From NCBI GenBank assembly GCA_013365325.1, contig JABVXV010000014.1:248001-312000 (forward strand): a stretch of 64,000 nt of DNA. The letters run 5' to 3'. Below are positions 8,501 to 39,990 of this stretch, piece by piece. Positions within the stretch are counted from its first letter, which is position 1, and every line of letters begins with the position of its first letter. The stretch comes from Dipetalonema caudispina (Eukaryota > Nematoda > Chromadorea > Rhabditida > Onchocercidae). Below the pieces are notes generated by a model. The model was given only the letters and a program-made list of their open reading frames with translations, was not told the DNA's origin and made no database searches. Both the position numbers and the translations under genes were made by a program.

Positions 8501-11500
8501 TGATTCTGAAATACTTCATTAAAAGTTAGAGATTTTTGTAAAAATTGCCTTCTTAGTCTTTTTTTATCACTTAAAAATGTTACTTTTTATAAGGTACTAA
8601 TAAATTAATAAAAATTTTTGATGAATATGAAATATTTTTTTTGTTACAACACTTTGACGTACGTGAAGATAAACATGTCAGTTTTACATTCTAGAAGAGG
8701 AATGATACTAATACGATGCATTTTGTTATGATACATTGAAACAATGATAAAATGTACCAAAACCAGCTGTATCCAATACGCCAATTGAAAAGATACTATC
8801 ATCAAAAGGCATGCATTCCGTTATTTTGCTAACAATTGCAGTAAATAAACGATTATAAATGGCTTTAGCAAGAGCATCACGTGCTATACTTGCTTCATTA
8901 GCACGCAATGGTACTCTACAATGTAGAATAAAATGGATGTAATTCTAACAGATGTAAAATTTGACGTGGATCTTTCCTAAATTTGTTTTATTGAACAAGT
9001 GAAATTACTCTTACAGTAAGATTTTACCATCATAACAAATAGGTAAATAAAACGATACAGTGTTTTTATCATCGTTTGATAACTGAACAATCAAAAGTGT
9101 AAAAATTAACGAGAAAATTTTATGCATAATCAAATGATTTTCAATAAAATTAAATGCGTATTAAAAGTATTTGTGGAGAAGATCGTAGTGAGTTTGGAAA
9201 TTAACTTGATAGGAAAAATCTCATAAACTAAGATCGTTAACAATCTTGTAACATTTTCCGGTATAAACGGAATTCTGAAGTGATGCTTCAAGTAAATAAT
9301 GGGGGAGGATGTAGCCAACAAAAAAAAAAGTATGATGATAAGAAGCGTAGGAAGAATTCATGTAATTTCATCTTTTGTTATTATTAGGTTTTTATTAAAA
9401 AAGAAAAAAATTATTGGGAATTTTTTTTGATCAATTTTTTTTTTTTTTTTTTCAACAACTAACGCATAAAGTGTTCCCTTTGTGCCACCCCTAGTTGGTT
9501 GCATTAATCGGATCGCAAGATGTTTCCTCAAATCGGTCACATCAATGCCAAGTAATTCTGCTGTATTTATTAAATATATTTCACTTTCTTGTTTAACATT
9601 ACAACCACCTACAATTTATAATCATTGAAGCATTTCCATCATAATTTTTACAACATCTATTTAATGGTTATTGTCTTCTTCGAAGTTACCATTATCCATC
9701 AAATTTTTTTTATAATTGTAATTATAATCAATTATAATTATAAAGTAAATTCATTGTGGTCTCTTTAGAAGGCCTAAGATTTTTTTTTTTTTCAGTCTGT
9801 GATGTTTTATGACAATCTCATGTAAATATATTTGAAAATTTAACTTGAAAATACTCTCAAAAAGATTAACAAAGAACTATTGGTTGTTAAAATATCGAAC
9901 TTATAATTTAAGTTTACAATTTGAAAATTAGTAGCTTATTCTGAATTCGAAATTAAGTCATATTTAGTGATTAAATATACAACTTTATTTTTCCATAAAT
10001 AAAATTTTAATTGCGCTTTGCCACAAATTTAATTAAAATCCTATACGTAACTAATACAATTATTTCCTTATAATTAAAGATTACTTTTGAAACCGATTGT
10101 TTCATCTACAAATTCGATATTTCCAAGATGCAAAACTGCTGCAACTATTTCGAATACTTCATTTCGAATATCTGCTGAGACATTAATACGATTGAATGCA
10201 TCTAACAATTTTTGGAAATCGTTATAATCATCAATTAAATCGTCTTGCATATCATCCTCAAATAGCATTTTTAAAAAAGGAAATAAAAAAGAAAAAAAAA
10301 TTAAATTGAGAATTGAACCAATAATTCTGTCACAAAAAGTTTCGAAAATTGATTTTTCCTTTTAATTATAAATTAAATTAAACAATTACATGAATTGTTT
10401 GTAGCTTAAATGGAAATAACATGAAAACTAAGCATAATACGACAAAATGGCCATTTTTACCAGGTCATATTTCTTTCTTTCTTGTACCATTTTACTTGAA
10501 CTTTCCTTATTCAAGAAAAATTGCATGCATCCTTTATTCAGATACTAAAAGAATAAATTTTACTGAAATATAAAAATTGATTCAAATCCTGAAATGATTT
10601 GTTTTTTTTTTAAAGTGAAAATAAATAAAATGAATGGTTCAAAGTATAACCAACATTGAAATTTTCCAATCTATTCAATTTTAATTTATTTGCCATTTGT
10701 TTATCAGTACCAGCAATTAATTGATAAAATATATGATAATTCCTTTCACATTCATTCTGTCCACAAAGACGTGAACGTTCCAGTAAATAGTGCGATACAA
10801 AACCACCCACAATAATACCCTAAAAATGTTAAAAAAAAAAGAATTTATTACAAATATATATATATTTTAAATGCCATATAAAAAGATAAAAAAAAAATTT
10901 CTCACACCGATTTAAACGAAATTGGAATTTAGAAATGTTTTAAGTTTTGATGAAGAATTTGTGCTGTTAATTTACTTTGTGAATTAGCAAATTGCTTGAT
11001 TCTAAATGTATTATTTCTCGCATTTCAAAAATGCTGAAATATTTTCTAAAATTCTAATCTTTTTACAATCACAAATACATATTCTTTTATAATTTTTTGA
11101 TACTACTTTATATATTAGAAAAATTTTTTTGGTTTCAATTGAAATGCTTCACTGAGTGGTGGTATATGTAAATTGCTAGGCTATGAAGACTATTTTCAAA
11201 CCTTGTCATTGAAATGTATTTCAATAAATTTGCCAAATCGACTGCTATTATTGTTGTATGCTGTTTTTGCATTTCCAAATGATTCCAAAATTGTACTTAC
11301 TAAATTTTAAATAATTACAAATATGTTTAATTCTGCTTGAAAAATCTAGAAATTTGCTAAGTAAATGAATATTACCGTAGTTTGATTTGATCTCGTTTGA
11401 AATTGTTGTAATCCGAAAGATTTTAAGGATTTAGCTGATTAATAAAGCTTATTTTCTTACTTGTAAAGTTACACGTTTGCAAAACGATTTATACGTAATA

Positions 11501-22408: not shown

Positions 22409-24179
22409 ATGCGCTATTTTGAAATGGGATATTGTCGAATTCTAGTATCTATCCATATTTTAACGATTTTAATGTTTGGGATTCAATATGATGCATGCGC
22501 TTCATTCCCAGCTACCAATGAAGGTAAGCTTTTAAGTGTTCTATATGTATAAAAATTTCAGAAATAATATTTTGGATTACTTCAGAATTTTCTTCGATAT
22601 TTCAGAATTTCCTAAATTCAGTACTGGCTTCCATTTTATCTAATCGAGAGGATACACTAGTAAATCTTCAAGTATCCTTACTATCCTCGTTCCGAAGATG
22701 TTTTCCATAGAAATATTGACCGGGATTTCCAAACTTCTGCTGACATGACCTACTGCATTCAGATGACATTGCATTAATTGATAATCAACCAGTAGAATGT
22801 TGTTAATTTAAGTTTTTTGATGAGAATGAAATTTACTTATACCTTTCGCAGTGGTGGCCCGATGTTGTTCTAAGGAATATGCTGAATGTTGCACAGAATC
22901 AGTCGATTTTATAAAACCACTTCGTTGTGATGGTATGAAATTAGAAACGAGAATTAATGTGACCTTATGCATCCAAAAGATAATGTATGGAGAATATCAA
23001 CCAATGCTCAATCTTACAGGTCAATTTTCGATTCATCAAAAATATTTACAATTCTTCAACTATTTACATCCTCATTTCTTTTTTTTTTAAATATTATTTC
23101 TGCTCTAATATCTGATTTGAATTCTGATTTTGTTGATAATCGATAATAAAAAGAAAAAAGAACTAAATGAATTAAAGAGCTAAATAAGAATTAAAATTTA
23201 ATATATTAGTTAAATAATGAATATCGGAAAAAAATATGTGCAAATCTTCGGGTTAAAATTATAATCAAAATTTTAGATACAGTATGTTGCGATGTGTTTG
23301 CTGATGATGATAACGATGAAAAAGAGCATTGTTTAACAGAATGTATTACAGTAATGCAGATACCTGCTCTCAAGAATGATAAAAAATTGAAAAGAATTAA
23401 AGAATGCAGAAGAGTAAATCCGCTTTATAAAGTAATCCTTAAATTTTCTATTTCTAAAATTCTTTGAAACCAAAAAAAAAAAAAAAAAAAAATGTCCCTT
23501 ACAGTATTACATAACTGCAAAATCCAATACAAATAGCAAAGCGTATTTGTTAAAATGATTTCATCTTATGCATAAAACAGTGATAAAATTCAAATTTTGA
23601 TCTCTGAAAACCAAGCAAAGTGATGGAAGAATTTATGAATCTTAGGAAATTTGAAAGAAAAAGAAAAAAGAAAATATCATTACACTACTGAAACAATTTT
23701 ACTTCGATCTAATGATCAAAATAATTATTCATCGTTAAGAAGGTGATCATCTCGAAATAATGAAAACTTCCAATAATACAAGAGAAAAACTAATTGTTCA
23801 TTTATATTTGTTCCAAATATAAAGTGACCTTTCCAAAAATTATAATTTCAATAGAAGTTCATAAAATCACAAACATCTTAAAAATCAATCATAAATAAGT
23901 TCACAGCGATACCTATTAAATTAAAAAGTAATGCTAAAGTTAAAGGTCAATTTTATTGGTCCATAGATCTTTGCGTTAGTTTTTTTTTTTTTTGGCCATA
24001 TATATTTATTAATGCTGTCAATTTTATTCAAATAAATGGAATAATTTCAGTGTTTCCATCGATGTTTACAATGGTTACATAATAGAAATGAAGTTGAAGC
24101 AGTGAATTTCGAACAAGAATGCTCCATAAAATTGAAAATGTTACCGGGGAAAGTGTATATTGGTCCCGAAATTAAATGA
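22409..24179 (+). CDS. Secreted cysteine-rich protein with CC doublets, 188 aa
   Basis: Exons 22409-22523, 22852-23019, 23277-23431 and 24051-24179 join in phases 1, 1 and 0 for 567 nt (188 aa). Residues 1 to about 30 form a signal peptide (ILVSIHILTILMFGIQYDAC). The mature part has doublets and pairs of cysteines: RCCSKEYAECC, RCDG, TLCIQK, TVCCDV, HCLTEC, ECRR, CFHRC and ECSI. These probably form disulphides outside the cell. A potential N-glycosylation site is visible (NVT). The spacing resembles nematode-specific CC-doublet families such as the DB module, but I cannot match the pattern exactly. The CC-doublet domain of the gene at 35346-36760 is the nearest similar style in the window. 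Function unknown. Confidence 0.7.
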
Positions 24180-25304: not shown

Positions 25305-27303
25305 ATGTCTACAAATATTAATCAATCATCGATGGAGATTATGTCACAGATCCAGAAATCTTCAGCAATACTCCTCAGTACTGGAAATATTCAGCGACAT
25401 CCTGAAGTATTTCGACAAATGTTTAAAAATTCAGCGGAAGAACTTGTGGCTGCACTCGAACATCAGCTCGATGGATCAAATGGACCAGAGTTGGAGATGA
25501 GGTCTGTTATATCGTAATTTATGGAAATTTGAAAAAGGAAATGTTGAGGTTAAGTATGCTTATAATACTTATATTTCCTTTAGAAAGAATAATTTTGAAC
25601 TTTAAACAAAGAGAAACTTCATTGAAAAGAAAATAATGTTTTCCATTACCTAAAAGAAAGAAATGTTTTAGACCGGATGGTACGATAATGCTTGCTCGTG
25701 ATTCAGAAAACTGCCGTTTAAATACCATCGAAAAAGCCGATATGAAGATAACATTAAAGGTTCATGCTTTTTCCTTTGCCTTGACTGGTTTGAGAGGAAG
25801 AATGTGACGAGTTTCTGGCTCTTACCTGAAAAATTACATAAAATTTGGAACTCTTTGTACAAACGTTTAAATATAATTGTTATAAAACATCTGAATAACT
25901 TTCAATGCCTAAAATGAAAAACTAATGGAATTGCAGGTTTTCATGTCTGCATTAGACATAAAACAAGTGGAAGAAAGTATTGATACAGCTTTGCACGAGA
26001 TCAACACTAAATCAGTTTCTCAGCTGATCATTGCTTTCCCTCCGGATGATAAGTTGGTAATCTTCTTTTCATTCTCAAAAACGGTATTGATTTCTGTGAG
26101 GCAAAATTTGCTACAATTTTTAGATTATAGATCTTATTTTTAAGCTTTACGATTACGCTTTGGTTCCAAAACAAAAGAAAATTGAAAGTGTGTTTTTTTT
26201 TCTGTCTGTTTTCATTTTAGGGACATCATTAAAATGGTATAACCATATAATTTATAAATAAAATATCTGCAGCATGGAAAAATGCTATTTCAGATCGTGT
26301 TTGCTTGCCCAATATTTTTGAAAGCTTGAAACATAGAAATAGAGAAATTTTACAGAATATAGATCCGGCTGTACCCTCAGAAGTACAACAATGGCTGTCT
26401 CATATCCTGCCGTTTTGGAGACAGCTAGAAACTTTGGCGAAGACTTATAAAGTAAACACATTGGGTGTAGCGGATCTTGACTATGAGCAGTTAAAAGCGC
26501 TGTATGAATCCACGAATGACCATCGTCCAATGATTGACCATTATAACACTGAACATTGTTGTACGGTTTGTTTTTGCATTTTCATGTAGTTTCAATTTAT
26601 ACTTAGTCAGAAGTAAATTTCAAGTCTAATGGGATACTTCTTTGGAGTTGTGATAGTACCTTTATAGTTTATCTACAACAGGTCCCTCCTGAATTACGTG
26701 AATATGCGAAGCAAAAGGATATTCAGTTGTTGACCCACAATGATCCGAATTTATACAGTATTACTGAAAGATTAGGTGGTACGACCGGGAAACTATTTGG
26801 AAATGAACACTTCGACCTTCTCTTCATTGCGAGGTTTTTTTTTTTTTTAATTTTATTAATATTTGACGCATTTTTTGTGGCTGATAATCTTGATCAGTGA
26901 CGATTTACACAAATATAAGAATGGTTAGAAATACTAGATCTTATTTCTTCTTATTTAAACTGCTAACCTATTGCTGTTAAAAGATAAGGCCCACATTGAT
27001 CAAGTAAGTTATGCCTAATTATTGGAAATCACAGTTATTAACAAGCAACCCAGGTAAACTTTGGTTAATCAGTTGCGAGCAATGTGGAACATTTAATCTG
27101 AATCATATTTTCTGTTTCTCAAGCATTGGTTTCTTGATTGTAATGCTGCTCATTTTTACATGAAGATTTGTAAATATTTAAAGAAAAAATGATTTATAGG
27201 GTTAATAGGAATTAATAATTACAGACTTACGATATGGTTGCGAAGCCGTTCAATAATCGTTGGAAAGGGTTACATCCTCAAGTTCCTCAAAAACATTTCT
27301 TGA
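25305..27303 (+). CDS. GCLM: Glutamate-cysteine ligase modifier subunit
   Basis: Regulatory subunit of the rate-limiting enzyme of glutathione synthesis; it binds the catalytic subunit and lowers its feedback inhibition. Exons 25305-25501, 25672-25759, 25937-26056, 26124-26187, 26273-26565, 26682-26833 and 27225-27303 sum to 993 nt (330 aa), with phases 2, 0, 0, 1, 0 and 2. Family landmarks seen are ILLSTGNIQRHPE near the start, SQLIIAFPPDD, VNTLGVADLDYEQLKALYE, HCCTVPPELREYAKQKDIQL followed by LTHNDPNL, and a final WLRSRSIIVGKGYILK. The fold is aldo-keto-reductase-like in known members. The protein is about 55 residues longer than human GCLM (274 aa). Part of the excess is an inserted region around IIDLIFKLYDYALVPKQKK. 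The start follows a likely trans-splice acceptor. An upstream stress-response site was not identified. Confidence 0.92.
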
Positions 27304-30300
27304 ATTGAGAAACGTTTCGTTCTTGAAGCTGCAGTTTTTAAATATGTACGTGTAGATTCTGTGGTGTAAAAGTAGACAAACTTGGTGGTGATGGTGCTGT
27401 GAATAATGTTCAACTTTTTTGTAAATGTTGGTACCACAAATTTTTTGCCCATATTACAATGTTCTTGTAATGTTAACCAGAAGTGGTGGACTTTTTTGAA
27501 ATTTGAATATGTAGAAGCAATAGAGTTTAAAAGAAGCCTTATTTATCAAAGGTCAACCAGCTAATTAACAGAATGGTTCAACGACTGGTAACATTAGGCT
27601 GTTTCAAGAGGTCGATTCTTTTCGGATGTACGATGTAAGAAGTGTTCCACCAGTACACATTCCGCATTGAATGATTAGATCATCATACTGGAGATAGGTT
27701 TAAATCGCTTTGTTTAGAAATTCAGATCTTTTATTTATTTCTTTGAATTAGAATTTTACATTAATATTTGTATCATTTCGGACGAGTTACTTGAAACCTA
27801 TTGTTAAAGCAGTGGTTTTTGTTTTAAACACTGACTGTATTTCAAATTCCTTAGTTTCGAGTTAAAAAATTCTGGTCCATTTATTTGTGATACTCTCATT
27901 TTTTATCTTACGATGGTGGTTGGTAGAAAATTAAGTGATCTTTTTTGCTTACTATATACTTCAATATTTGTATCCGATGCGTTCCAATATTCAGATTTTG
28001 TGGACTTCAGGAAATAGAATATATTTCACTTCAGAAGAGTGGGAAATTTGTATTCTGTAATGTTTGTAGTTTGTATTTAAGGCGAATAAGATTTTGTTGC
28101 CAGTCATTGCGTATAGACAAAAATTTCCTCGATCCATACCACATCCATGCATGAAAGCCTTTTATATACCAGGAATACTAAGGACAAAACAAATATTTGT
28201 GGAAAGTTCATAATAATCTTACTAGTTTGAATCTCCTTTATTTTAATCCCGGTTGACACTTGAAAAAGTTTCTTTTTTAACTTTAGGCAGAAAATTTTAC
28301 ACTTAAAGGCAATACAACTGCTGGGAATCGAATGCAAAGCCTGTCGTAAGTGATTACTTACTGCTGAGGTGTAAAGTTTTTTTTTCATGTCTTCAAAAAA
28401 ATGAACAGAATTGTATTTTCCTCGTGGAAATAATCTCCTTCGAAGATTTCCTTTCAAATTTCACTTCTCCATCATTTCTCACCTCGATCTCTGCCAAACA
28501 CTTGCACTTTTACAAAGTTATCAATTAATATCTATGTTAAATGGCATTATGGCGACATGCCTGCGACATGTTCATCCTTTTTTTTTCCACCAGAAAAATA
28601 TCTCCTTCTGTTAACCAACATGGAGCATAAGTAATTTGAATAGCCGTTTCTAAGTAGCCGTCTGATTCCGTTTTATCGTTACTTGCTGGACATACTAAAT
28701 AGCAGTAAGTTATCCTTGGAAAATTTTAAATTTCAAATACAATGAAAAAATCTTTAAAATTCGCTAAATAACACCGAAAACACTTACAGTTCAATAGCTC
28801 TAGAGATTAAACAATTCTTGAGCAATCGCAAATCATCGGTTTAAGTATTGTTTGCGACAAAACAATTGCGTTAGGTGACAATGATACTTCAACTTCCATG
28901 TAATTTTGCTTGTCTCACAATGAAATTTAGCAAATATTTCTAATCCCGGTGTACGGTAGCTTATTGTTCGCAACTTCTCCTACAGTAAGATTACAAAATG
29001 ATTAGTTTAAGAGCATGTTAAACGGACTGATGATTGCAGAAATGAAGCTGTACGTTAAGAATCATATCGTTATTTTGTGAATATCAGAAATGGATCATTC
29101 CAAAAAGTTAAAAATGTATGAAATCTGCTCAATTATTTTTTTAAATTTCCTTCTCCTAATATATAACTAAATTAAACTTTCAAATTAGCCTCTCTTTTCA
29201 TCGCTAGAAATTGTCACGAAAATATCATAACTTATACAGTTGCCAGTTAATCAGTCAATCTTTTGATTTCCTCATACTCTAAAATCATTGTTCAATAACG
29301 ATGAATTTTTAAAGTAGAAGAAACATGCATAATTTTTTCCAAAAAGCCGTAAATTGAAAAGCTGTTATTTTTAGCCTCCCTGGATACTACTGAAGACAAC
29401 CATGCAAAAAAACTTACCTGAATTTCTAACTTTTGAAGCACCACCTACAGCATGGATGCATTTGGAAAAACAGTAAATCCATTTTTGATGGCTTTCTCAA
29501 AAGTTGTAACAAGCTTCTTCTTTCAATTTTTTCATTTACCCCTATTGTTAGCCGTATGATCAGTTGTTTTTATCATTGTCTAACATATCAATGCTAAACC
29601 CAATATGTTGAAAGATCGAAATATCGTTGACAGATAATTTCAACATTAGAATTTTAGGCAATATTTTATCGTTGATTAATTGTTAAGTGATTTTTGCAAT
29701 TTATTATATTTTCCGCAGGAATCCTGGATTTCTCGAATTTTGTAATTACCTAGTTCTGTTTATAAGATAACTGAGAATTCATATTTCATAAAATTTCCGG
29801 AAAATATTGCTAAAAAAAAAAAATCTTCCCATTTTATCTGCAGTACACATTTCATAACTTCCTCTGCAGTCATAAATCGAAAAATAAACGAGAGAAAGCT
29901 ATAGATTGGTAAGCTTAAATTAGTATCATATATGTGTTATGCTCAAATGGTATCAGTTACACCACTAGTAAGTATTATCATCCCTGTTGTGCAATATCTT
30001 TTAGCATCATCGTAATAATAAACAAGGTAAGAAGTTATAGATGAGAGGCATCTGTTATTAGAGCTTATCTGTTAAAGTGGGTAAAATAGCTAAGCTTTAT
30101 ATCACAATGGATCGTTTTGCTAGAGATTGATAGATAGCTACAGAACAGTTGTGCTCGTTGATGAAGTAAGTAGTGCAATACTCTCTACTGGTCCCCTCAC
30201 TCCTTTCTCCCCTCCCCCTATCAGAGAATTTAACCTTATCAGTAATCATTTCATCTGTAAATTTCTTGGCCATATCATTAATGCTAAAATAAGACTTATT

Positions 30301-30382
30301 TTATTATAGTATTTTTTTTTATCTTCATAATTAATTTTGGCTTCATTCATGAACAATTTCTTGACTTAATAATGTTATAAGT
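27304..30382. other. About 3 kb without a supported gene
   Basis: Base composition is slightly richer in GC than other spacers, and open frames up to 117 codons occur (minus strand 28104-28457). None has a credible splice partner, family motif or compositional support. It may hold decayed elements. Its right end is the presumed promoter of the SelP-like gene. Confidence 0.4.
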
Positions 30383-33300
30383 ATGGAGAAAATGTACTAC
30401 TACAATGTCATCTCTTTTAATATTTTATTATTGCTGCTATCTATTCTAATATTTGCGAAACCTATCGTCAAGGTAAAAATTATTCCAAAAATTTATTATT
30501 ATATTTAAGATTTAAATTATCAGATCAAAGTTTATTTGATAAATAATACAATGTTATTTTGCAAATTAATAAGATAACAACATTACAAATTAATACAGTA
30601 TTTTTTTTTTTTTTTTTTTTTTTTTTTATGCTATTTGATGAGATCATAAATTAATGATGTGTCATTAATTGATGATCCTAATAAAAAAAAAAGTATCTTT
30701 TTTATCCGAAATAAGACTAATGATACGATTAAATTTTCTTCATATACTTCATCCTTTTTGTATTGAATGTAAAAAAGACAAAACAAATCATCATAGAACA
30801 TTTTTCATCTCTTAGCTTCTTCAAACGTATACAAGCATTTTTCATCATCACATCAATAGCACATTCAATGAATTTTCTCTCCTTTCTTCAACTTTGTCTA
30901 CACTCATGTATTCTTCTCAATAAGGTTTTAATTCTTTTGTTTCATTCTATAAAAAGTATACAAAAATGATAGGTTAATTGTTTAATAATTTTAATTTTTT
31001 ATAGCAATATTAATTCGTATTGGTATCAATTATCATCGCCATTTTTATAATTGTTTAATAAAATTTTTTGCTAAATGTTTATTTTCATTTATTTCTAAAG
31101 TATAAGTTCGAAAATGAAAGAATTCATATTTTTTAGAAGATTGATAAGTTAAGAAAATTCATAATAACTTCACAATAATCATTTTCAAAGTTAACAGTAT
31201 GCATTTATTTCAATTTATATCAGTATTTTTTGCAGGGTTCACCGATATTATGCAATCAGACAAAACCATGGAAATTGGGTGGTCGAGATATTGTCGCAGA
31301 TTCGAAGGGTTTCGTTCTACTAGTAGTACTAATGCCCATGCAATGTGAACATTGCCACAAACAATTGATGAAGTAAATTTATTTTTGAATCTTTTTTAAA
31401 TGAAAATCTTTTGATGTTTTGAAGTATTTCATTATTTACTTATCGCTAAGTTGAAATTTCCTCAAGAATATATTAAATTATAGATTCCAAACAGTAATGG
31501 AAACACTGCCGGAAATAAGGATTGTTGTTATAGCTCCATATGATGAGAATCCTCGTCTGATTGAGCGCTATCGAGGGGAATTCTCTCGTGTTGCAATCGG
31601 TATGGAATCATTGGATGAGCGAATCTGGAGCACACTATCAGGATCTGCTCATGATCATTTTATTTATGATCGGTGAGAAATTAATCTCTATATATTCAGC
31701 ATTGAATTTTCTTCCACACTTATCCCAAGAATTTGATTGTGACACATTAATTCCAGTATAATGAAAAGTTAAAAAAAGAAAAAATTACTATTATTTCTAA
31801 ATTTTTTGCTATCTTAACTTGTGAGATGTGAATAAAAGAAAATGTATTATTTATAATGATGCCTTCTTTATTAGATTTAAAAAGTTGTGCTTTTATGTTT
31901 CATTTCAATATTTTCAAAATTATTTGTAACAAGCATTTCTAGATGTGGACGTCTAGCTAGCGTTATTCGGCATCCAAAAAGTGATACGTCAAAATTTGAG
32001 CATACACTTTGGGCGTTAAAATTAGCTATTAGTTATGCTCAATGTGGTTGGTGCCAGTACGATCCACCCAACTTGCCGCCAGCTCAGAAATCTGCCACAA
32101 CCAATGCTGCGTCTATGCGCCGTGGAAAAACAAGAAAGACTGTAAGGTTTTCCAAAACTATGAATCATTTTTTAAAGATGAGTGTAATTTAGAAATTCTT
32201 CACTAAATTAGTTCGATCCATACATTCAAATGACGTGGAATTGAAAATGATTGATTGAAATAGAAACAATTAATGGGATTCACTTTTAATAAATTGTATA
32301 AAGCAGTACATCGCTATTGAGTGCTTAATAGCATCTAAGAACGGTAGTAGAAAATGAAGAATCCGGAATTCTTCGGAAGGTTTATACTTTGAGATGCTGA
32401 GATGATCTAAGCATTATCTTTGCTATATATGTCCTCCAACAATTGTAACTGATGAGATAGGATGAATATGTTTATCATCTTTAATTGAAAATCATCATGT
32501 TGTGATCGATGGAAAATTGATGAAATTACTTGTGATCTGAAAGGATAGGATAGGTGCAGAGCAAAAGATTTCAGAAAAAGTCTGAAGTAGTGAATTTTAT
32601 CATCAGTAAAAGCTGAGAAATTTTCATTAACAATAAAACGACAACTTTTGATAGCATTAAAAAAAGGATACACAGGTGCATTTTGAGGGAATAAGAGAAA
32701 CATATCAAAGGATTGAATTACTACTAATGCTCAATTTTTTTCATCATTTTATAAATGGAACTGGAAAGGTGGAAAAGATATTAATCTTAGTGAGAAAAAG
32801 TTGGAACGGAATGATTGATTTATTTTCAAAATTTAATAATAACAGTGAGGAAGTTAGGTTGATATTTAATTCCTCAAATTGTATTAAAATTTTAACCGAA
32901 ATTTCTTACATTTATTTTGTAATAATTGAGTAAAGATTGGTTGATACTATGAGAACTTCTGGCTACTATAAGTTCCGTCAAAGTAAGAATCCCATCTTGA
33001 AACTTCTTGAGTTTATGTGAATTGATGGAGAGAGAAAAGAGATACATTTTGAATATATAAACTGGTAATTTATTTTAGAAAAAAAAATCATGCTAACTTC
33101 TTCTGAAAAACTCTTCTTGCTGCATTTCAACAAATTGTTACAACTTCTTAGCGCAATTATTTTTGTGTAAGATGTCCAAAAATAAGTGCTCCAAAGAATT
33201 TCAGCGTATCAAAGCAGTGGTATATCCACAAATTGGTAGAACAAATACAGTGAATTCGTATCGTCGATATGGTATTACATCTGATCATGACCGTTTTTCC

Positions 33301-36300
33301 TTGCGAATTAATACAGTCGCTCCAACACATGAAGGTCATACAAGGATTTCTGGTGATCAGATTTCTCACTTGTCCAGTGTTACTCTTCCATCAACGACTA
33401 TTGAAAGTAATCAAAACACAATAATCACTAGCAGAGAATCACAACAACAGCAACGAGTCTCAGTGCATAAACAAATGCCAAGTCCGCAGCAAACACAACA
33501 AATGTAATATTTCTCGATATAAATATTAAATTCTACAATCTTAAGTCTTAAATCACTTCAAATTAAAAGTGGATTCCATTTGGAATCTAAAAGTAACCTT
33601 TAAAAAAGTTATGAAGATGAACCTGATAAGAATTTAGAAGTAGCGCGATTTTCAACGTAATCCTAAAATAAAAAATAAGGTCAGGAGGATCTTTGCAATT
33701 ATATTCGTCAGCTTCTTTCATTCCGATTTATAGTAATATCAAATCCAATATTTAAAGAAAATTCTATATAACAAGCGCATTACTCACTTCATGATTTCAT
33801 TTCATTATTCCGTTAATTTGGCCTTTTCGATTCAAATCATTTCTTTTTTTTTTCTCCGAGGTGTTTAAGGTTTGAAAGTGGTCAACGAAGGGTTACAACT
33901 CGACCGGATGGATGGACAGTATCACGATCATTACCTAGTGGAATACATCAAGATGGAAGTCAACAACATGAACAAAATCAGCAATGGAAAAAAGAACAGC
34001 AAGATCGGCAGGTGCAAAATGAAAGAAAACAGGAACAAGAGCATCAACAAGCTTTGGAACAGTTACGCATACAACAGGAACAGCAACAGCAACAAAGAAT
34101 TCGGGAATATGAAGAAGAACAAAGGAGGATTCAGGAGCAACGACGATTACAGGAAATACAACGGCAACATGTAGAACAACAAAGACTGCATCAACAAGTG
34201 ATCTCATAACTATTCGTTGAATTTCTATAATCTCTCGATCAAAATTTGCTGAAACAAGTGTGACATTTTCGATTTTCGTTGTAAACCAATAGTGACAATT
34301 TATGAGAAATGCTATATTTAAAAAATTCTTAATATTAGAATTTAACAAACATCAAAAAAAAAAGCTATCGAAATCATTTTAATTTGTAGGAACTCGCAAG
34401 AAGAATCGAAGAACAGCGAAAATTACGGGAACAAGCAAGTGAACTTTACACTGATATAAGTAGCGAAGAACAGGAACGTCATGGGCTTGATCCAAAAACT
34501 GAGAATAATTTGAAACAACTTAAAGCTGGACAAAATCAACAGCAGCAGCAGCAGCAAAACATTCAAGGTCACTTCTAAAAGTTCTCTGATAATTTCGATC
34601 ATTGTCAAAATTCTTACTTCAAATATTGTTGTAACAACATATTATATAGAACCAAAAAAAAAATGTTGATATTCCGGTACTACAAATATAAATAATAATA
34701 ATAATAATATTATCAGGTAGTCAAAGATGAATTATTTTTATAGCAGGAATTCATTTTAGAAATTGATCTCTACTAGGATAATTTACTAATGTTCGTTTGG
34801 CGCTAAATATCATCGTTGAAGAGTTCACTTTCAGATTATACAGTGACAACAAGAGCAGATTCTGATTCCATTAGTCAAGCAACGAAAAGTTCAGCTTTGT
34901 ATGATACAGGAGATGAAGAAAGTGATTATGATTATTCGCAGGCGATCAGTAAAACAACCGCTACTTCAACTGAGAGAGTTGGAATTAAATTGAATTATTA
35001 AATTTTTTTTTTTTCGAGCAATGGATTATTAAATTTTTGAACACATAAATTTTTTGATTTTATATCTGAGGGTTAGGTAAAGAATTATATACTTTTAAAA
35101 GATTTTAGGAAGCAAATTGAGCGAAATATCTTTCGATAATCTAATGTTCCATTGTTAATATGTTACCAAAAATTAATTTCAAATATTTTCTTATAAATCA
35201 TAAATTGATTAAAAGGATGAAGAATAATATTGATTTTTGGGATGGATTAAATTCTGGATTAACTTTTAAAAGTACATCATGAAATCATATAAATGAATGA
35301 ATTAAAAGTACAATATATAAATGAATTTATAATTTGAATTTCCAGACTCAAATCTTAGGTACAAAACCTCCAGAACATCCAACATTTCTTTTCGAGCATC
35401 AAGTACCATGTGCTGCATTTACGGATGAAATATGCATTGAACAGGTACTGTACGCTTTTCAGAACAAATTTTTAAAATGATGAGTTATTGTTGTGAAGCG
35501 TTTATTGCATAAATCCTTCTCAATAATTCAGAAAAGAAGAATTGGAGCAGATAAAATGAGCAAATGTTGTGATAAAGGGATTTATTTAACGGATTTATGC
35601 GTACCGGGACGTTGCACAAATGCTACGACTGAATTATGTTGTATGCAGAAATTTCTTCAGGTTTGTTTCCTTTCTTTTATCTCAAATATTGTATCATTAG
35701 ATAATTAATGTTACGTAAAAACTATTTATTCTAAGTATGTTTACTTATGAAATTAACCTAAAATATGTTCCTGAAAGTTTATGCAATGAGTTGAGAATGT
35801 TTTTTTTTTTTTTTTTTCTCTTTTTTTTGACATACTTTAATTGTTAAGCTGTATCTCAATAAGTTTAATGTTGATCAGACAAATACTACTAACAGTATGT
35901 TATCAGTTATAGGTCGGAAGAGATTTAATAAAGAATTTTTGAAGATGATTTTGTGAAAAGAGATTATTTTCCTTGTTCAATGATATTTAAATTTTATTAT
36001 TTTACAATTGCAGTCCAAATACAAATGTTGTCTAAATGATAGTAAAGCAATTAATTCACCCGGTGATGCATTCAGTCGTTGTTGCTTTCATAAATTTGTA
36101 CAAAATGATGTTAGTTCTTTCTTACAATTGAAGATATTGTTAGTGAGATATTAATTCGAAAAGATATCTATTCTTCTAATTTTTGATTAATTTATCCTAG
36201 AGATAATTAAATATTTCTATAAAAAGATTCACAATGTTTGAAAAAAAAAAAAAGAAATCAATCTGAAAGGTAAATTTGTTTAGTAAAAAATGTAAAATGA

Positions 36301-36760
36301 AGAAGGATGGTGAAAGAGAAAAAACAAAAAAAAGATAAGAAAGAAAATCAGGGATTTTTCTAGATTACTCTAGGAATAATTCTTTCTTTGAAAATTTCAT
36401 TGGAAAAAAAAAAATGAAAAAATAAACTGAATTAATTTCAATTACTTCATATATTTTCAGGATAAATGTTGTCCAGCTCATCGTGCCAAATTTCATTGGT
36501 TAACAGCATATGAGATATGCTTACCCAATGTTCGGGTTGATCTAAGCGGTTTACGATTCACTGTATATCCTACCACTAATCTCGACACCAACCATGATAA
36601 TCAAGCATTGGAAAATACAATAACAATAGATCTAAATGTGGACAAATCATGGGATCATAGTTGTGAGCAAGGTGCCAAAGTGTTGCAATTCCCTTATTTA
36701 CCTAATGATGAACTTGAGGACGAGAAAAAGGGTGATGGGAATAGTGAGGAAAGCAGATAG
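30383..36760 (+). CDS. Secreted SelP-like (Cys form) thioredoxin domain fused to Gln-rich coiled coil and CC-doublet domain
   Basis: Exons 30383-30472, 31236-31372, 31484-31672, 31943-32141, 33172-33503, 33870-34197, 34390-34567, 34835-34977, 35346-35444, 35532-35660, 36014-36109 and 36461-36760 give 2220 nt (739 aa) in continuous phase. Residues 1-26 form a signal peptide (NILLLLLSILIFA). Residues 31-190 match the N-terminal domain of selenoprotein P: a redox CEHC at 67-70 replaces the Sec-x-x-Cys, STLSGSAHDHFIYDRCGRLA parallels the vertebrate NGSKDDFLIYDRCGRLV, and CGWC follows. Residues 206-425 are Ser/Gln-rich then a Gln/Glu/Arg coiled coil, with a CAG/CAA run in the next exon. Residues 533-680 carry CC doublets (KCCDKG, ELCCMQ, YKCCLN, SRCCFH, DKCCPA). 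An ATG opens the 33172 exon, so two genes are possible. However, the extracellular-type C-terminal half would then lack a signal peptide, which favours one gene. Confidence 0.72.
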
Positions 36761-36926
36761 CGCTTATTGAAAATACTCTAATCAATTAATTTCTTATATA
36801 AAATGCTTGTAAATTATTATATTTCATATATTCTTGTATATTACTGTATCCATCTATCAATTTTGACACCATACATATTAATTATTTAATTATTTAGATT
36901 GGAAAAGTAAACTTATCCTATGAAAA

Positions 36927-37151
36927 TTAAAAAGCTAATTTTAAATTAATCAATTTTCTATTCTTTGATGTTCTCAATTTAGGGATGACCACCACCTGTA
37001 GTACTCCTAAAGTTATATATTTTGTATATATGGTATCATTTCCCTTAGAAGTTAGTAAATTCATCCCTTCTTGCTGATCCTCTCTTTGTGCTTGTCTTAT
37101 AATATTGTTGTATCGATACATTGCAATCATTTCCAATTTATGATTTTGCAT
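36927..37151 (-). CDS. Possible 74-aa gene, weakly COX7A-like
   Basis: Single-exon ORF beginning MQNHKLEMIAMYRYNNIIRQ and containing EGMNLLTSKGNDTIYTKYIT, then a short hydrophobic segment LGVLQVVVIP and a basic end. An acceptor (tgtttcag) lies 9 bases before the ATG, as in trans-spliced nematode genes, and an in-frame stop precedes it. The order Gln-rich basic helix, Gly-x-x-LLTSKG, D-x-x-Y, hydrophobic helix loosely resembles cytochrome c oxidase subunit 7A. That likeness is slight, and the frame may be chance. It converges with the SelP-like gene, 166 bp from its stop. Confidence 0.28.
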   Translation of the reverse strand: MQNHKLEMIAMYRYNNIIRQAQREDQQEGMNLLTSKGNDTIYTKYITLGVLQVVVIPKLRTSKNRKLINLKLAF

Positions 37152-37970
37152 TTATTGTTCCTGAAACATCATTTTATCTACTACTTCTTAATAGTTAATG
37201 ACTTCAAAAGCTATTAGATGTTCATAAAATCAAAAAAAGCATTTATCAGATATTTTCAGATTTAGATTGAAATACTAACCTTGGAACTTTGAATTTCTGT
37301 TTTATCTGTAAAAAGAAACTTAATAAATTTTATGTTAAACAGTGATTAGATCTTCACTACCGCTTCGAATAATGTATTTAAAAGTTTTTGAAAGTGTAGT
37401 GATGAGTAATTGAAATCTGGAAATGGTCGAAAAAAACTCGAAATTGTCAAGATTATGGAATTTCATGAATTTTGAAAATTTCAATTTATTAAGCTGACTT
37501 TTTGTTTCATTAATAACATACCTGATACCTTGAGGATAAGAAGAGATATTAATGGTTAGAGGACGAAGAGAAATAAATAGTTGAAATTGTAGAGAAGAAG
37601 ATTGGATACCCGAGAGATGGCCTAATGTAGCACGGCTGAAACCCTGTAGCAAATTGATTAGGCTCTGAATTATGAACCTAATCGTTATTACGTTCAGCTA
37701 TGCCAACATCTTGCCTTGTCCCGTGTCCCGTATGATTCAGATAAAATACATAATAATACATCCCTCTTATAATACATATAGGTTGATGATGACTCGATCT
37801 CTTCAACAATCTGATATTTCAACGACAATGGAATGATTGGAAATTTAAGAATTTCAGGATCAGTATGATTGGTTGACTAACTAACTGACTAACTGACTGA
37901 CTGCTACATAAATAAATTAAATGGACAGTTCTCTTTACCCTCTTTCATTTAATAGAATTTATTATAAGAG

Positions 37971-37998
37971 GGAGAGAGAAAGAGAGAGAGAGAGAGAA
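37971..37998. repeat. (GA)n microsatellite
   Basis: GGAGAGAGAAAGAGAGAGAG... is a purine dinucleotide tract in the spacer between two convergent genes. Confidence 0.85.
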
Positions 37999-38135
37999 AT
38001 AAATGAAGAAAAGCGGTCGAATAATTGAATCCTCAAATAGCTGTCACAAATTGCAGACAATATCACCATTCCTCAGCTTAGTTACTTTACAGAGAGATGA
38101 CAGAGAAAAGGTAACTTTTATGAGACATGAGGAGA

Positions 38136-38137
<2 letters not shown>

Positions 38138-38170
<33 letters not shown>
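38138..38170. repeat. (TA)n microsatellite
   Basis: Uninterrupted alternating TA of about 33 nt. It generates Ile-Tyr repeats in open frames that are not genes. Confidence 0.9.
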
Positions 38171-38172
<2 letters not shown>

Positions 38173-38384
38173 TCAGCATGTACACAGGTGTGATCGGTAT
38201 GTTGTATAGCCACTTTTCTCCTTACCAATTGTCCTTCCACCATCCTTTTATTTACTTAGTTTTTCATCAATGTCACCAACAGGATGACGGAAGATTGGCC
38301 AAAAGCTAAGTTAACTAAACTGATTCTCTTTCAAATGTTTACTGAACAACTCAACAACCAATGCTAATTTGCTCCTTCCTCTAT

Positions 38385-38404
38385 CTCCTCCTCCTCCTCC
38401 TCCT
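38385..38404. repeat. (CTC)n microsatellite
   Basis: Perfect CTC triplets of about 20 nt, in the same gene-free spacer (37152-39990) as the GA and TA tracts. Nothing else in that spacer could be supported as coding. Confidence 0.8.
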
Positions 38405-39990
38405 TTTACCACATTATTAGTTGTGTATCCTTTGTAATACTCGGTACCATCTATTCATTAAATCCACACCTGTATTATATCTCTGCATCTTTCTTCGGTA
38501 TAGCTTAGTGCCAGCCTATCATTCACTTTTCATTCTAATTTCATCTTTTTCTACGAAAATGCTTCAACTTAACTTCTCATTTTGTTCTTTAAAAAAAAAA
38601 AAAAAAAAAAAAGAAAAAAGAAAAAAAAAATTGAGTAAACAAATTTTGCTAACATTTCTTTTTTTTTTTTGTCTTCAACAATATCTATAAAAATTTCACA
38701 AATTTATTCAGAATTTAAATACAGTGATGTAGATCTTTTTATTATAATTTTGATAAAGCAACTAATATAATAGAATTCATTTAACTGTAACTTTTCGGCA
38801 CTTAATAGAATTCTGTACTTGAGTATTTTACACTTTTCAATTATGAACTTTTTTTTTCTGTTCTCAACCTATTACATACAATCTTTACTAAACATAAATT
38901 AATAATTTTCTGAAGTTTTTATTTCAGTACTTTTACATAATTAATGTTATTTCTGTTCTAATTCTTATTACTCATTCAAATAATTGGCTCTATTGCATTT
39001 CTTTATAGAGAGCTTGAAGAGATTTCATGAAATGAAAATATTTAAAATTCGAATTATGCTATAAAAAAAACTTTTAATAAAGTTAATTGATGAATGTCTC
39101 TGCTACATTTGAATTATTTCTGTGTTAGAAATAATCAACATTATTCAAAGTAAGCATTTGAAATTTAAAAAAATTAGTATTGTTAAAAGATATAACAATT
39201 GATATTCTTATGTAACTATAACACGTTGCTCTTGTAAAGGATGGTGTTAATTAACGGCTCATTAACGATGAAATTATTTAGATTTCACCTTTGAAAATCA
39301 TTTTCTTCAAAATTATTTCGCTTTTTTATACTAAAAAAATTCAGTTGCATCCTTTCTAAAGTTTATCTTTTTTAAGTAATTTTGAAAAAAAAAAAAAAAA
39401 AATTCAATACAAATATGCGGCATAACTTAAACTGTTTGAATTTGCATCCGACAAAAATCAAAAATTATAAAAGTAACCTTAGGAAACCAATATGAAGCTG
39501 AAGTTTTTATTTCTGACGGTGCACTGAAATATTATTTTCAAATTCAAGTTTCATATTCTGCTTTTTTTTTTTTAGTTTGATTTATACAAATGTACAGTTA
39601 CAGTATTTAAAATAAAATAAACTAAATGAGTAAAAAAGCGGCCATTTATTTGTAGTAAAACGAAAAACAAAACTGAACAAAAACTTTTGTTTCATCACAA
39701 TAATTTAATTCCTTCTCGATAGTACTATCAACCAATTAACTAAATCAATGAATAAATTTAGTCATGTTACTTCAAAAATCAACAAAATTTTTGTTCAGAT
39801 TATTTAAAATCATAAGTTTTTACATGATTTGTAAAATGATTTAAATCTATGACTTGAATTTTTGCATGATTTAAATCTGATTGTCATAAATATGCTATCA
39901 AGAAGTGCATCGTCTGCTAATGATCTATTGAAAATGATGTCTAAAAAATGATGAGCTATCGGAATAGGTAACATAATGATGAGCGAAATT

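What the first reader, a model, noticed from the sequence alone, without database searches (positions are those of the whole stretch)
30383..36760. SelP-type redox domain with Cys in place of Sec, fused to a Gln-rich coiled coil and a CC-doublet domain
The thioredoxin-like N-terminus matches selenoprotein P through the block IYDRCGRLA and the neighbouring STLSGSAHDHF. The redox site reads CEHC with TGT codons where vertebrate SelP has Sec-x-x-Cys. The same reading frame runs on through about 220 residues of Gln/Ser-rich coiled coil into a domain of repeated Cys pairs. I know of no described protein with this order. It could be an extracellular thiol oxidoreductase tethered by the coiled coil, in a lineage that has largely abandoned selenium.
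Basis: partly seen in the sequence, partly recalled or inferred. Interest (0 to 1): 0.78.

Follow-up and report, generated by a model that had tools for sequence, protein, structure and literature searches.

The report
Nematode PQN-42: Sec-less selenoprotein-P head protein
This worm gene encodes a probably secreted protein that joins a selenium-free version of the selenoprotein P head, through a variable glutamine-rich linker, to an uncatalogued sixteen-cysteine domain; relatives occur in many nematodes, one of them under the uninformative name PQN-42, and several have lost the redox cysteines.

Summary
In a filarial nematode, one 12-exon gene (30383-36760, +) encodes 728 aa: hydrophobic N-terminus, SelP_N domain (50.1 bits, cut-off 23.2) with CEHC (codons TGT, TGC), a 366-residue linker and a 16-Cys domain. 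Exon 5 starts at 33205, not 33172. Nine filarial proteins have the same order, two with gaps in the Cys domain; one, 712 aa, comes from contigs of at most 3002 bases, which points to spliced RNA. The order is that of the nematode PQN-42 family (CBR-PQN-42), almost absent from the literature searched. The 16 C-terminal cysteines are invariant wherever the column is present; that domain had no Pfam or PDB match. The CxxC was lost at least three times, and the thioredoxin cis-proline is never proline (0 of 33). No coiled coil was supported. The genome still uses selenium: tRNA-Sec and a TrxR ending Gly-Cys-TGA-Gly. Best reading: an extracellular two-headed protein whose thioredoxin-like head is redox-active in some lineages and not in others.

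The parts
30383..30472 (+). Exon 1: start codon and hydrophobic N-terminus (30 aa, likely signal peptide)
   Evidence: ATG, GT donor, phase 0; aligned with filarial homologues. Signal peptide judged by eye, no predictor run.
31236..31372 (+). Exon 2: start of the SelP_N domain, with C36 and the CEHC site C67/C70 (codons TGT GAA CAT TGC)
   Evidence: CEHC aligns to the CxxC of 3hdc and 2vim
31484..31672 (+). Exon 3: middle of SelP_N, up to STLSGSAHDHFIYDR; His132 at the cis-proline position, followed by Asp133
31943..32141 (+). Exon 4: end of SelP_N, with C140 (DRCGR) and C173/C176 (CGWC)
   Evidence: Read-through of its donor would stop at 32192.
33205..33503 (+). Exon 5: linker; corrected start 33205 (reader: 33172)
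   Evidence: 8 of 9 filarial homologues join here; acceptor score
33870..34197 (+). Exon 6: Gln/Arg/Glu-rich linker
34390..34567 (+). Exon 7: linker
34835..34977 (+). Exon 8: linker with acidic-tyrosine patch EESDYDYS
   Evidence: such a patch in 30 of 30 members examined, within 110 residues before the Cys domain
35346..35444 (+). Exon 9: start of the 16-Cys domain (PCAAFTDEIC)
35532..35660 (+). Exon 10: 16-Cys domain (KCC...CVPGRC...LCC), sequon NAT
36014..36109 (+). Exon 11: 16-Cys domain (KCC...RCC)
36461..36760 (+). Exon 12: end of the 16-Cys domain (KCC...EIC...SC), tail, TAG stop

Best explanation
The gene is the filarial orthologue of nematode PQN-42, a probably secreted protein with two disulfide-rich folded ends joined by a long flexible linker. 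The N-terminal end is a selenoprotein P-type thioredoxin-like domain with Cys-x-x-Cys in place of Sec-x-x-Cys; the C-terminal end is an uncatalogued domain of 16 invariant cysteines (probably eight disulfides, one well-conserved glycosylation sequon). Inferred mechanism: the C-terminal domain binds or anchors the protein in the extracellular matrix, body fluid or cuticle, and the linker lets the head reach its targets. In lineages that keep the CxxC the head makes or swaps disulfides or reduces oxidants; where the CxxC is gone it works only as a folded binding or structural module. Shown: gene structure, homology, domain order, Cys conservation, loss of CxxC. Inferred: secretion, disulfides, location, enzymatic activity.
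For: Both ends in nine filarial proteins and in relatives from Gnathostoma to Caenorhabditis. P0005 (712 aa) from contigs of at most 3002 bases, against 6.4 kb of genomic span here. One locus in the own genome: 11 of 11 matches there, 6 of 6 with a distant relative. Tree in line with nematode groups. All 16 C-terminal Cys present in every row that has the column, 26-29 rows each; C36 26 of 26, C140 28 of 28, C173 28 of 28, C176 26 of 28. No cysteine in the linker, so even counts in both ends.
Against: The CxxC is absent in 5 of 32 sequences (Gnathostoma P0014, Strongyloides P0017, P0018 and P0020, Pristionchus P0019; P0018 is unnamed and placed by its near identity to P0020), at least three losses on a tree built without those columns, so redox chemistry cannot be the universal function. 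The cis-proline position is proline in 0 of 33. With a profile that also held CxxC-less rows and the linker, 3hdc and 2vim scored only E 0.031 and 0.064, behind low-complexity chance hits. Three database proteins end after SelP_N (P0001 Brugia malayi, P0002 Thelazia, P0003 Dracunculus); P0001 seems to read through the exon 4 donor, so a short form is not excluded. No structure model could be made. No expression, location or phenotype data were found.
Confidence: 0.5

Rival explanations
1. The SelP_N head is not an enzyme: what is conserved is the fold with its two likely structural disulfides and the 16-Cys domain, and the protein is a structural or ligand-binding component of nematode matrix or cuticle.
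For: CxxC lost at least three times while C36, C140 and C173 stay invariant; no cis-proline; the Cys domain is closer to the window's than SelP_N is in 17 of 18 non-filarial rows (exception Steinernema), e.g. 43% against 21-22% in Strongyloides and 44% against 26% in Pristionchus; Gln/Pro/Tyr-rich linkers in several relatives.
Against: CxxC kept in 27 of 32 sequences. On a fixed tree the three longest SelP_N branches are those of the CxxC-less lineages (1.9, 1.22, 0.84), as if loss of the site relaxed the domain; but Auanema, with a CxxC, is close behind (0.83), and the SelP_N/Cys-domain ratio is as high in some CxxC-bearing lineages (Auanema, Diploscapter, Caenorhabditis stem).
Confidence: 0.33
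2. Two genes: a SelP_N-only gene ending near 32192 and a separate gene starting at 33172.
For: P0001, P0002 and P0003 end after SelP_N; the window's frame runs on past the exon 4 donor to a stop at 32192; an ATG stands at 33172.
Against: Nine filarial and several distant proteins join both parts; P0005 joins them within contigs of at most 3002 bases; the 33172 acceptor scores -0.3; the read-through tails of window and Brugia are not alike by eye beyond VR.
Confidence: 0.04
3. A true selenoprotein P relative that stores or carries selenium as Sec.
For: SelP_N homology; the species has tRNA-Sec.
Against: No in-frame TGA in the model; no SECIS match in the window at gathering scores or in 30200-38500 at E up to 5; no Sec-rich tail; no His-rich stretch (His 4% of linker).
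Confidence: 0.02

Closest known systems
Nematode PQN-42 family (C. briggsae CBR-PQN-42, P0035; SelP_N domain-containing proteins of Wuchereria, Brugia, Dirofilaria and others)
   Same: Same order: N-terminal SelP_N-like domain, low-complexity linker, 16-Cys domain; tree position
   Different: The filarial linker is longer than in the Caenorhabditis proteins measured and richer in Arg and Glu; the C. briggsae linker is Gln/Asn/Pro-rich. SelP_N of the three Caenorhabditis species is only 22-25% identical to the window's.
Vertebrate selenoprotein P (SELENOP), Pfam SelP_N PF04592
   Same: N-terminal thioredoxin-like domain; LC...W start, CxxC in the place of UxxC, IYDRCGRL, CGxC (human sequence from memory)
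   Different: No Sec, no SECIS match, no His-rich region, no Sec-rich receptor-binding tail; a different C-terminal domain instead
Thioredoxin / TlpA-like proteins (3hdc, 2vim)
   Same: CEHC aligns with their CxxC
   Different: His instead of cis-proline; four further conserved cysteines
HER-1 (another Cys-pair protein of nematodes, encoded in the same window)
   Same: Cys pairs, hydrophobic N-terminus
   Different: No profile similarity to the 16-Cys domain (hhalign probability 0.3%, single-sequence template)

Membership tests
Selenoprotein P | SelP_N domain | tested here: met
   50.1 bits, cut-off 23.2
Selenoprotein P | Sec (TGA) in the UxxC site | tested here: not met
   TGT and TGC at CEHC; no in-frame TGA in the model
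Selenoprotein P | SECIS element in the 3' UTR | tested here: not met
   No SECIS family match; Rfam models may miss unusual SECIS
Selenoprotein P | His-rich region and Sec-rich, receptor-binding C-terminus | tested here: not met
   His 4% of linker; the C-terminus is the 16-Cys domain. Feature list from PMC4699779, passage.
Nematode PQN-42 family | SelP_N-like domain + linker + 16-Cys domain in one protein | tested here: met
Nematode PQN-42 family | Orthology to a named PQN-42 | tested here: met
   One locus in the own genome, tree following nematode groups with CBR-PQN-42 in it. C. elegans PQN-42 itself was not among the hits and was not compared.
Thioredoxin-fold thiol oxidoreductase | CxxC in the thioredoxin position | tested here: met
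   Sequence-profile alignment to 3hdc and 2vim; no structure model
Thioredoxin-fold thiol oxidoreductase | cis-proline facing the CxxC | tested here: not met
   Proline in 0 of 33; the P of 3hdc aligns with His
Thioredoxin-fold thiol oxidoreductase | Disulfide exchange activity | not testable with these tools
   Needs a protein assay
Coiled-coil tether | Heptad pattern above shuffles | tested here: not met
   Window: 34 of 60 shuffles as good; in 14 relatives 3 to 57 of 60. Crude test: best a/d hydrophobic excess over the whole linker; no coiled-coil predictor run.

The most novel reading that the evidence does not exclude
In nematodes the selenoprotein P head has become an extracellular metal-binding or metal-guarded thiol site: the CxxC faces a His where thioredoxins have the cis-proline that may keep metals out. 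In 32 sequences with both sites, His is there in 21 of 27 with the CxxC and in 0 of 5 without it (naive Fisher p 0.002, but the rows are related and only three losses underlie it; the other six CxxC-bearing sequences have Asn, Phe or Tyr). The 16-Cys domain would be the carrier or anchor, so that the old selenium-transport protein survives as a different cofactor or redox shuttle.
Probability: 0.1. Interest if true: 0.75.

Novelty: new variant of a known kind. Interest (0 to 1): 0.5.

Why it matters
Selenoprotein P has been described as vertebrate and, among invertebrates, found only in marine ones (passage of PMC4699779; passages of PMC3473315). Here its domain persists without selenium in terrestrial and parasitic nematodes, fused to a new domain whose cysteines are kept more strictly than the redox site. 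That lets one ask in C. elegans what the SelP_N fold does apart from selenium transport. It also bears on a published statement that SelP_N is commoner in parasitic worms (PMC4413821, passage): of ten orthologues scanned, seven miss the Pfam cut-off or show no SelP_N hit. Five are from worms I recall as free-living (Auanema, Mesorhabditis, C. nigoni, C. angaria, Pristionchus), two from parasites (Nippostrongylus, one Strongyloides), so part of that pattern may be a detection effect.

Tried and rejected
Two-gene model: rejected. Coiled coil: no support. Selenoprotein status: no TGA, no SECIS match. Known family for the 16-Cys domain: 14 members scanned against Pfam gave only two weak hits (E 0.14 in two members, E 0.11 in one), and the PDB one at E 5.4. 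An albumin- or ECM1-like origin was considered from memory of Cys doublets only; a paper search gave nothing useful, and no structural test was possible. Relation of the 16-Cys domain to HER-1: none seen. Relaxed evolution of SelP_N after CxxC loss: suggestive branch lengths, no clean ratio effect (24 of the 29 tree rows used). Pfam SelP_N over the own genome found nothing; the same search rang in 0 of 14 controls, and genes are split into exons, so it says nothing. Paper on the nematode selenoproteome (PMC1083425) not held. mir-72 microsynteny: one paper listing, not followed up. Rows dropped: P0013 (repeated segment, no Cys domain), P0027 and P0032 (mis-joined or odd gene models) left out of alignment A4; P0018, P0036 and P0001-P0003 left out of the tree and; P0028 and P0034 lack the region counted.

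Full report
What the window is. The base composition is 28% GC, and the closest proteins are those of Wuchereria, Brugia, Dirofilaria and other filariae. The own genome is 78.06 Mb in 764 contigs and the window lies on contig C55. I did not try to name the species.

Gene structure. Twelve exons with GT/AG borders give 728 aa. Exon 5 is best begun at 33205: 8 of 9 filarial homologues join there (P0011 Elaeophora carries 11 more residues resembling the stretch 33172-33204), and the acceptor scores 5.4 against -0.3 at 33172. Still, 5.4 is below all ten other acceptors of the gene, from which the matrix was made.

One gene, not two. Nine filarial proteins of 628-741 aa carry both ends; P0012 stops inside the Cys domain and P0011 lacks its middle, as gene models may. 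P0005 (712 aa; nine contigs, the longest 3002 bases; unnamed, source 'lgn', which I take from memory to be assembled sequencing runs) cannot be unspliced genomic DNA if its introns are like those here (6.4 kb span), so I infer spliced RNA. Against this stand three proteins that end after SelP_N. P0001 seems to read through the exon 4 donor; the window's own read-through would end at 32192.

The head. SelP_N matches residues 35-192 at 50.1 bits. A profile of nine CxxC-bearing rows finds 3hdc and 2vim in the PDB with CEHC on their CxxC. A wider profile, with CxxC-less rows and the linker, gave the same two at E 0.031 and 0.064 behind low-complexity hits.

The family. The first whole-protein search gave 16 hits, only the 7,987 candidates sharing most words being scored. 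A profile search gave 21 hits of 4,864 candidates, four already known, 17 new, among them C. briggsae CBR-PQN-42. Named hits come from filariae, Gnathostoma, Gongylonema, Steinernema, Strongyloides, Diploscapter, Pristionchus, Auanema, Mesorhabditis, Heterorhabditis, strongylids and Caenorhabditis. No ascarid, clade I or non-nematode name appeared, but candidates are limited by shared words and length, so absence is not shown. The tree (29 rows, CxxC columns left out) groups them as nematode taxonomy does, with warnings on several long branches.

What is conserved. In the Cys domain all 16 columns are Cys in every row that has the column (26-29 of 29). In SelP_N, C36, C140 and C173 are invariant where present, C176 is not aligned in two Caenorhabditis rows, and the CxxC is missing in 4 of 27 rows, or 5 of 32 sequences in the fuller count. 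The fewest changes on the tree are three. The position of the thioredoxin cis-proline is His in the window and Pro in none of 33. [quoted passage not shown] A sequon after C[ST] occurs in 30 of 31 proteins with a Cys pair. An acidic-tyrosine patch precedes the Cys domain in 30 of 30 segments; shuffled segments give 14.6 of 30 on average and at most 22 for the loose pattern, and 5.2 and at most 11 for the strictest, which is seen in 28 of 30.

The linker. It varies from 138 to 594 residues in the 15 sequences measured, and its make-up changes from Gln/Arg/Glu to Gln/Pro/Asn/Tyr. The heptad test gives nothing for the window (34 of 60 shuffles as good) and no consistent signal elsewhere (3 to 57 of 60). 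I read it as a disordered spacer; no disorder predictor was run.

The Cys domain. The window's domain has no Pfam match at E up to 1, 14 members give only two weak hits, and the PDB gives one chance hit. In one search I saw no protein with this domain and a different N-terminal partner, apart from models that look partial or mis-joined (P0034; P0027, which still holds SelP_N).

Selenium. The own genome has a tRNA-Sec at 71.7 bits (gathering score 47; 1 of 15 matches over the cut-off). A thioredoxin reductase gene ends GGA TGC TGA GGT TAA, that is Gly-Cys-Sec-Gly; I looked for that form with a pattern that contains TGA. Filarial TrxR is known as a selenoprotein (PMC8914392, passages). The lineage therefore keeps selenium use at least in TrxR.

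In print. A search for pqn-42 found one paper, with a primer table entry. Searches for SelP_N or selenoproteins with nematode or filarial words (listings, of which I opened a few for passages) found no description of this protein; PMC4413821 states that SelP_N is commoner in parasites (passage). Of ten orthologues scanned, three are just under the 23.2-bit cut-off (P0018, Strongyloides-like, 22.3; Nippostrongylus 22.9; Mesorhabditis 21.5), four have no SelP_N hit (Pristionchus, Auanema, C. nigoni, C. angaria), and three pass (C. briggsae 26.3, C. bovis 26.6, S. papillosus 26.9). The library holds open-licence papers only.

Verdict. This is a real, conserved gene of the nematode PQN-42 family.

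Noticed in passing
22409-22523, 22852-23019, 23277-23431, 24051-24179 (+): A HER-1 homologue (the secreted male-determining protein of C. elegans): 188 aa with a hydrophobic N-terminus, Pfam Caenor_Her-1 on two exons at 48.3 and 75.1 bits, and PDB 1szh at E 2.1e-19 for the joined protein. HER-1 was reported missing in two Dorylaimia nematodes (PMC3890508, passage); here it is present in a filaria. Whether that is already in print was not settled (listing).
   Followed up: partly
26251-26900 (+): Exons that by memory resemble the modifier subunit of glutamate-cysteine ligase (PPELREYAKQKDIQLLTHNDP); no significant Pfam match. If right, a glutathione-synthesis gene lies about 3.5 kb upstream of the SelP_N gene.
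   Followed up: no
37617-37719 (-): mir-72 microRNA precursor, 62.9 bits (gathering 60), about 0.9 kb downstream of the gene on the other strand.
   Followed up: no
10074-10361 (-): Myosin head exon, 36.8 bits.
   Followed up: no
G000 contig C268, around 26276-29084 (-); loci L019, L022, L027: Thioredoxin reductase gene of the own genome whose end reads Gly-Cys-TGA-Gly-stop, the Sec-bearing form.
   Followed up: partly
PQN-42 family, SelP_N domain: Seven of ten orthologues scanned miss the Pfam SelP_N cut-off or have no hit, so counts of SelP_N by genome may understate them.
   Followed up: partly
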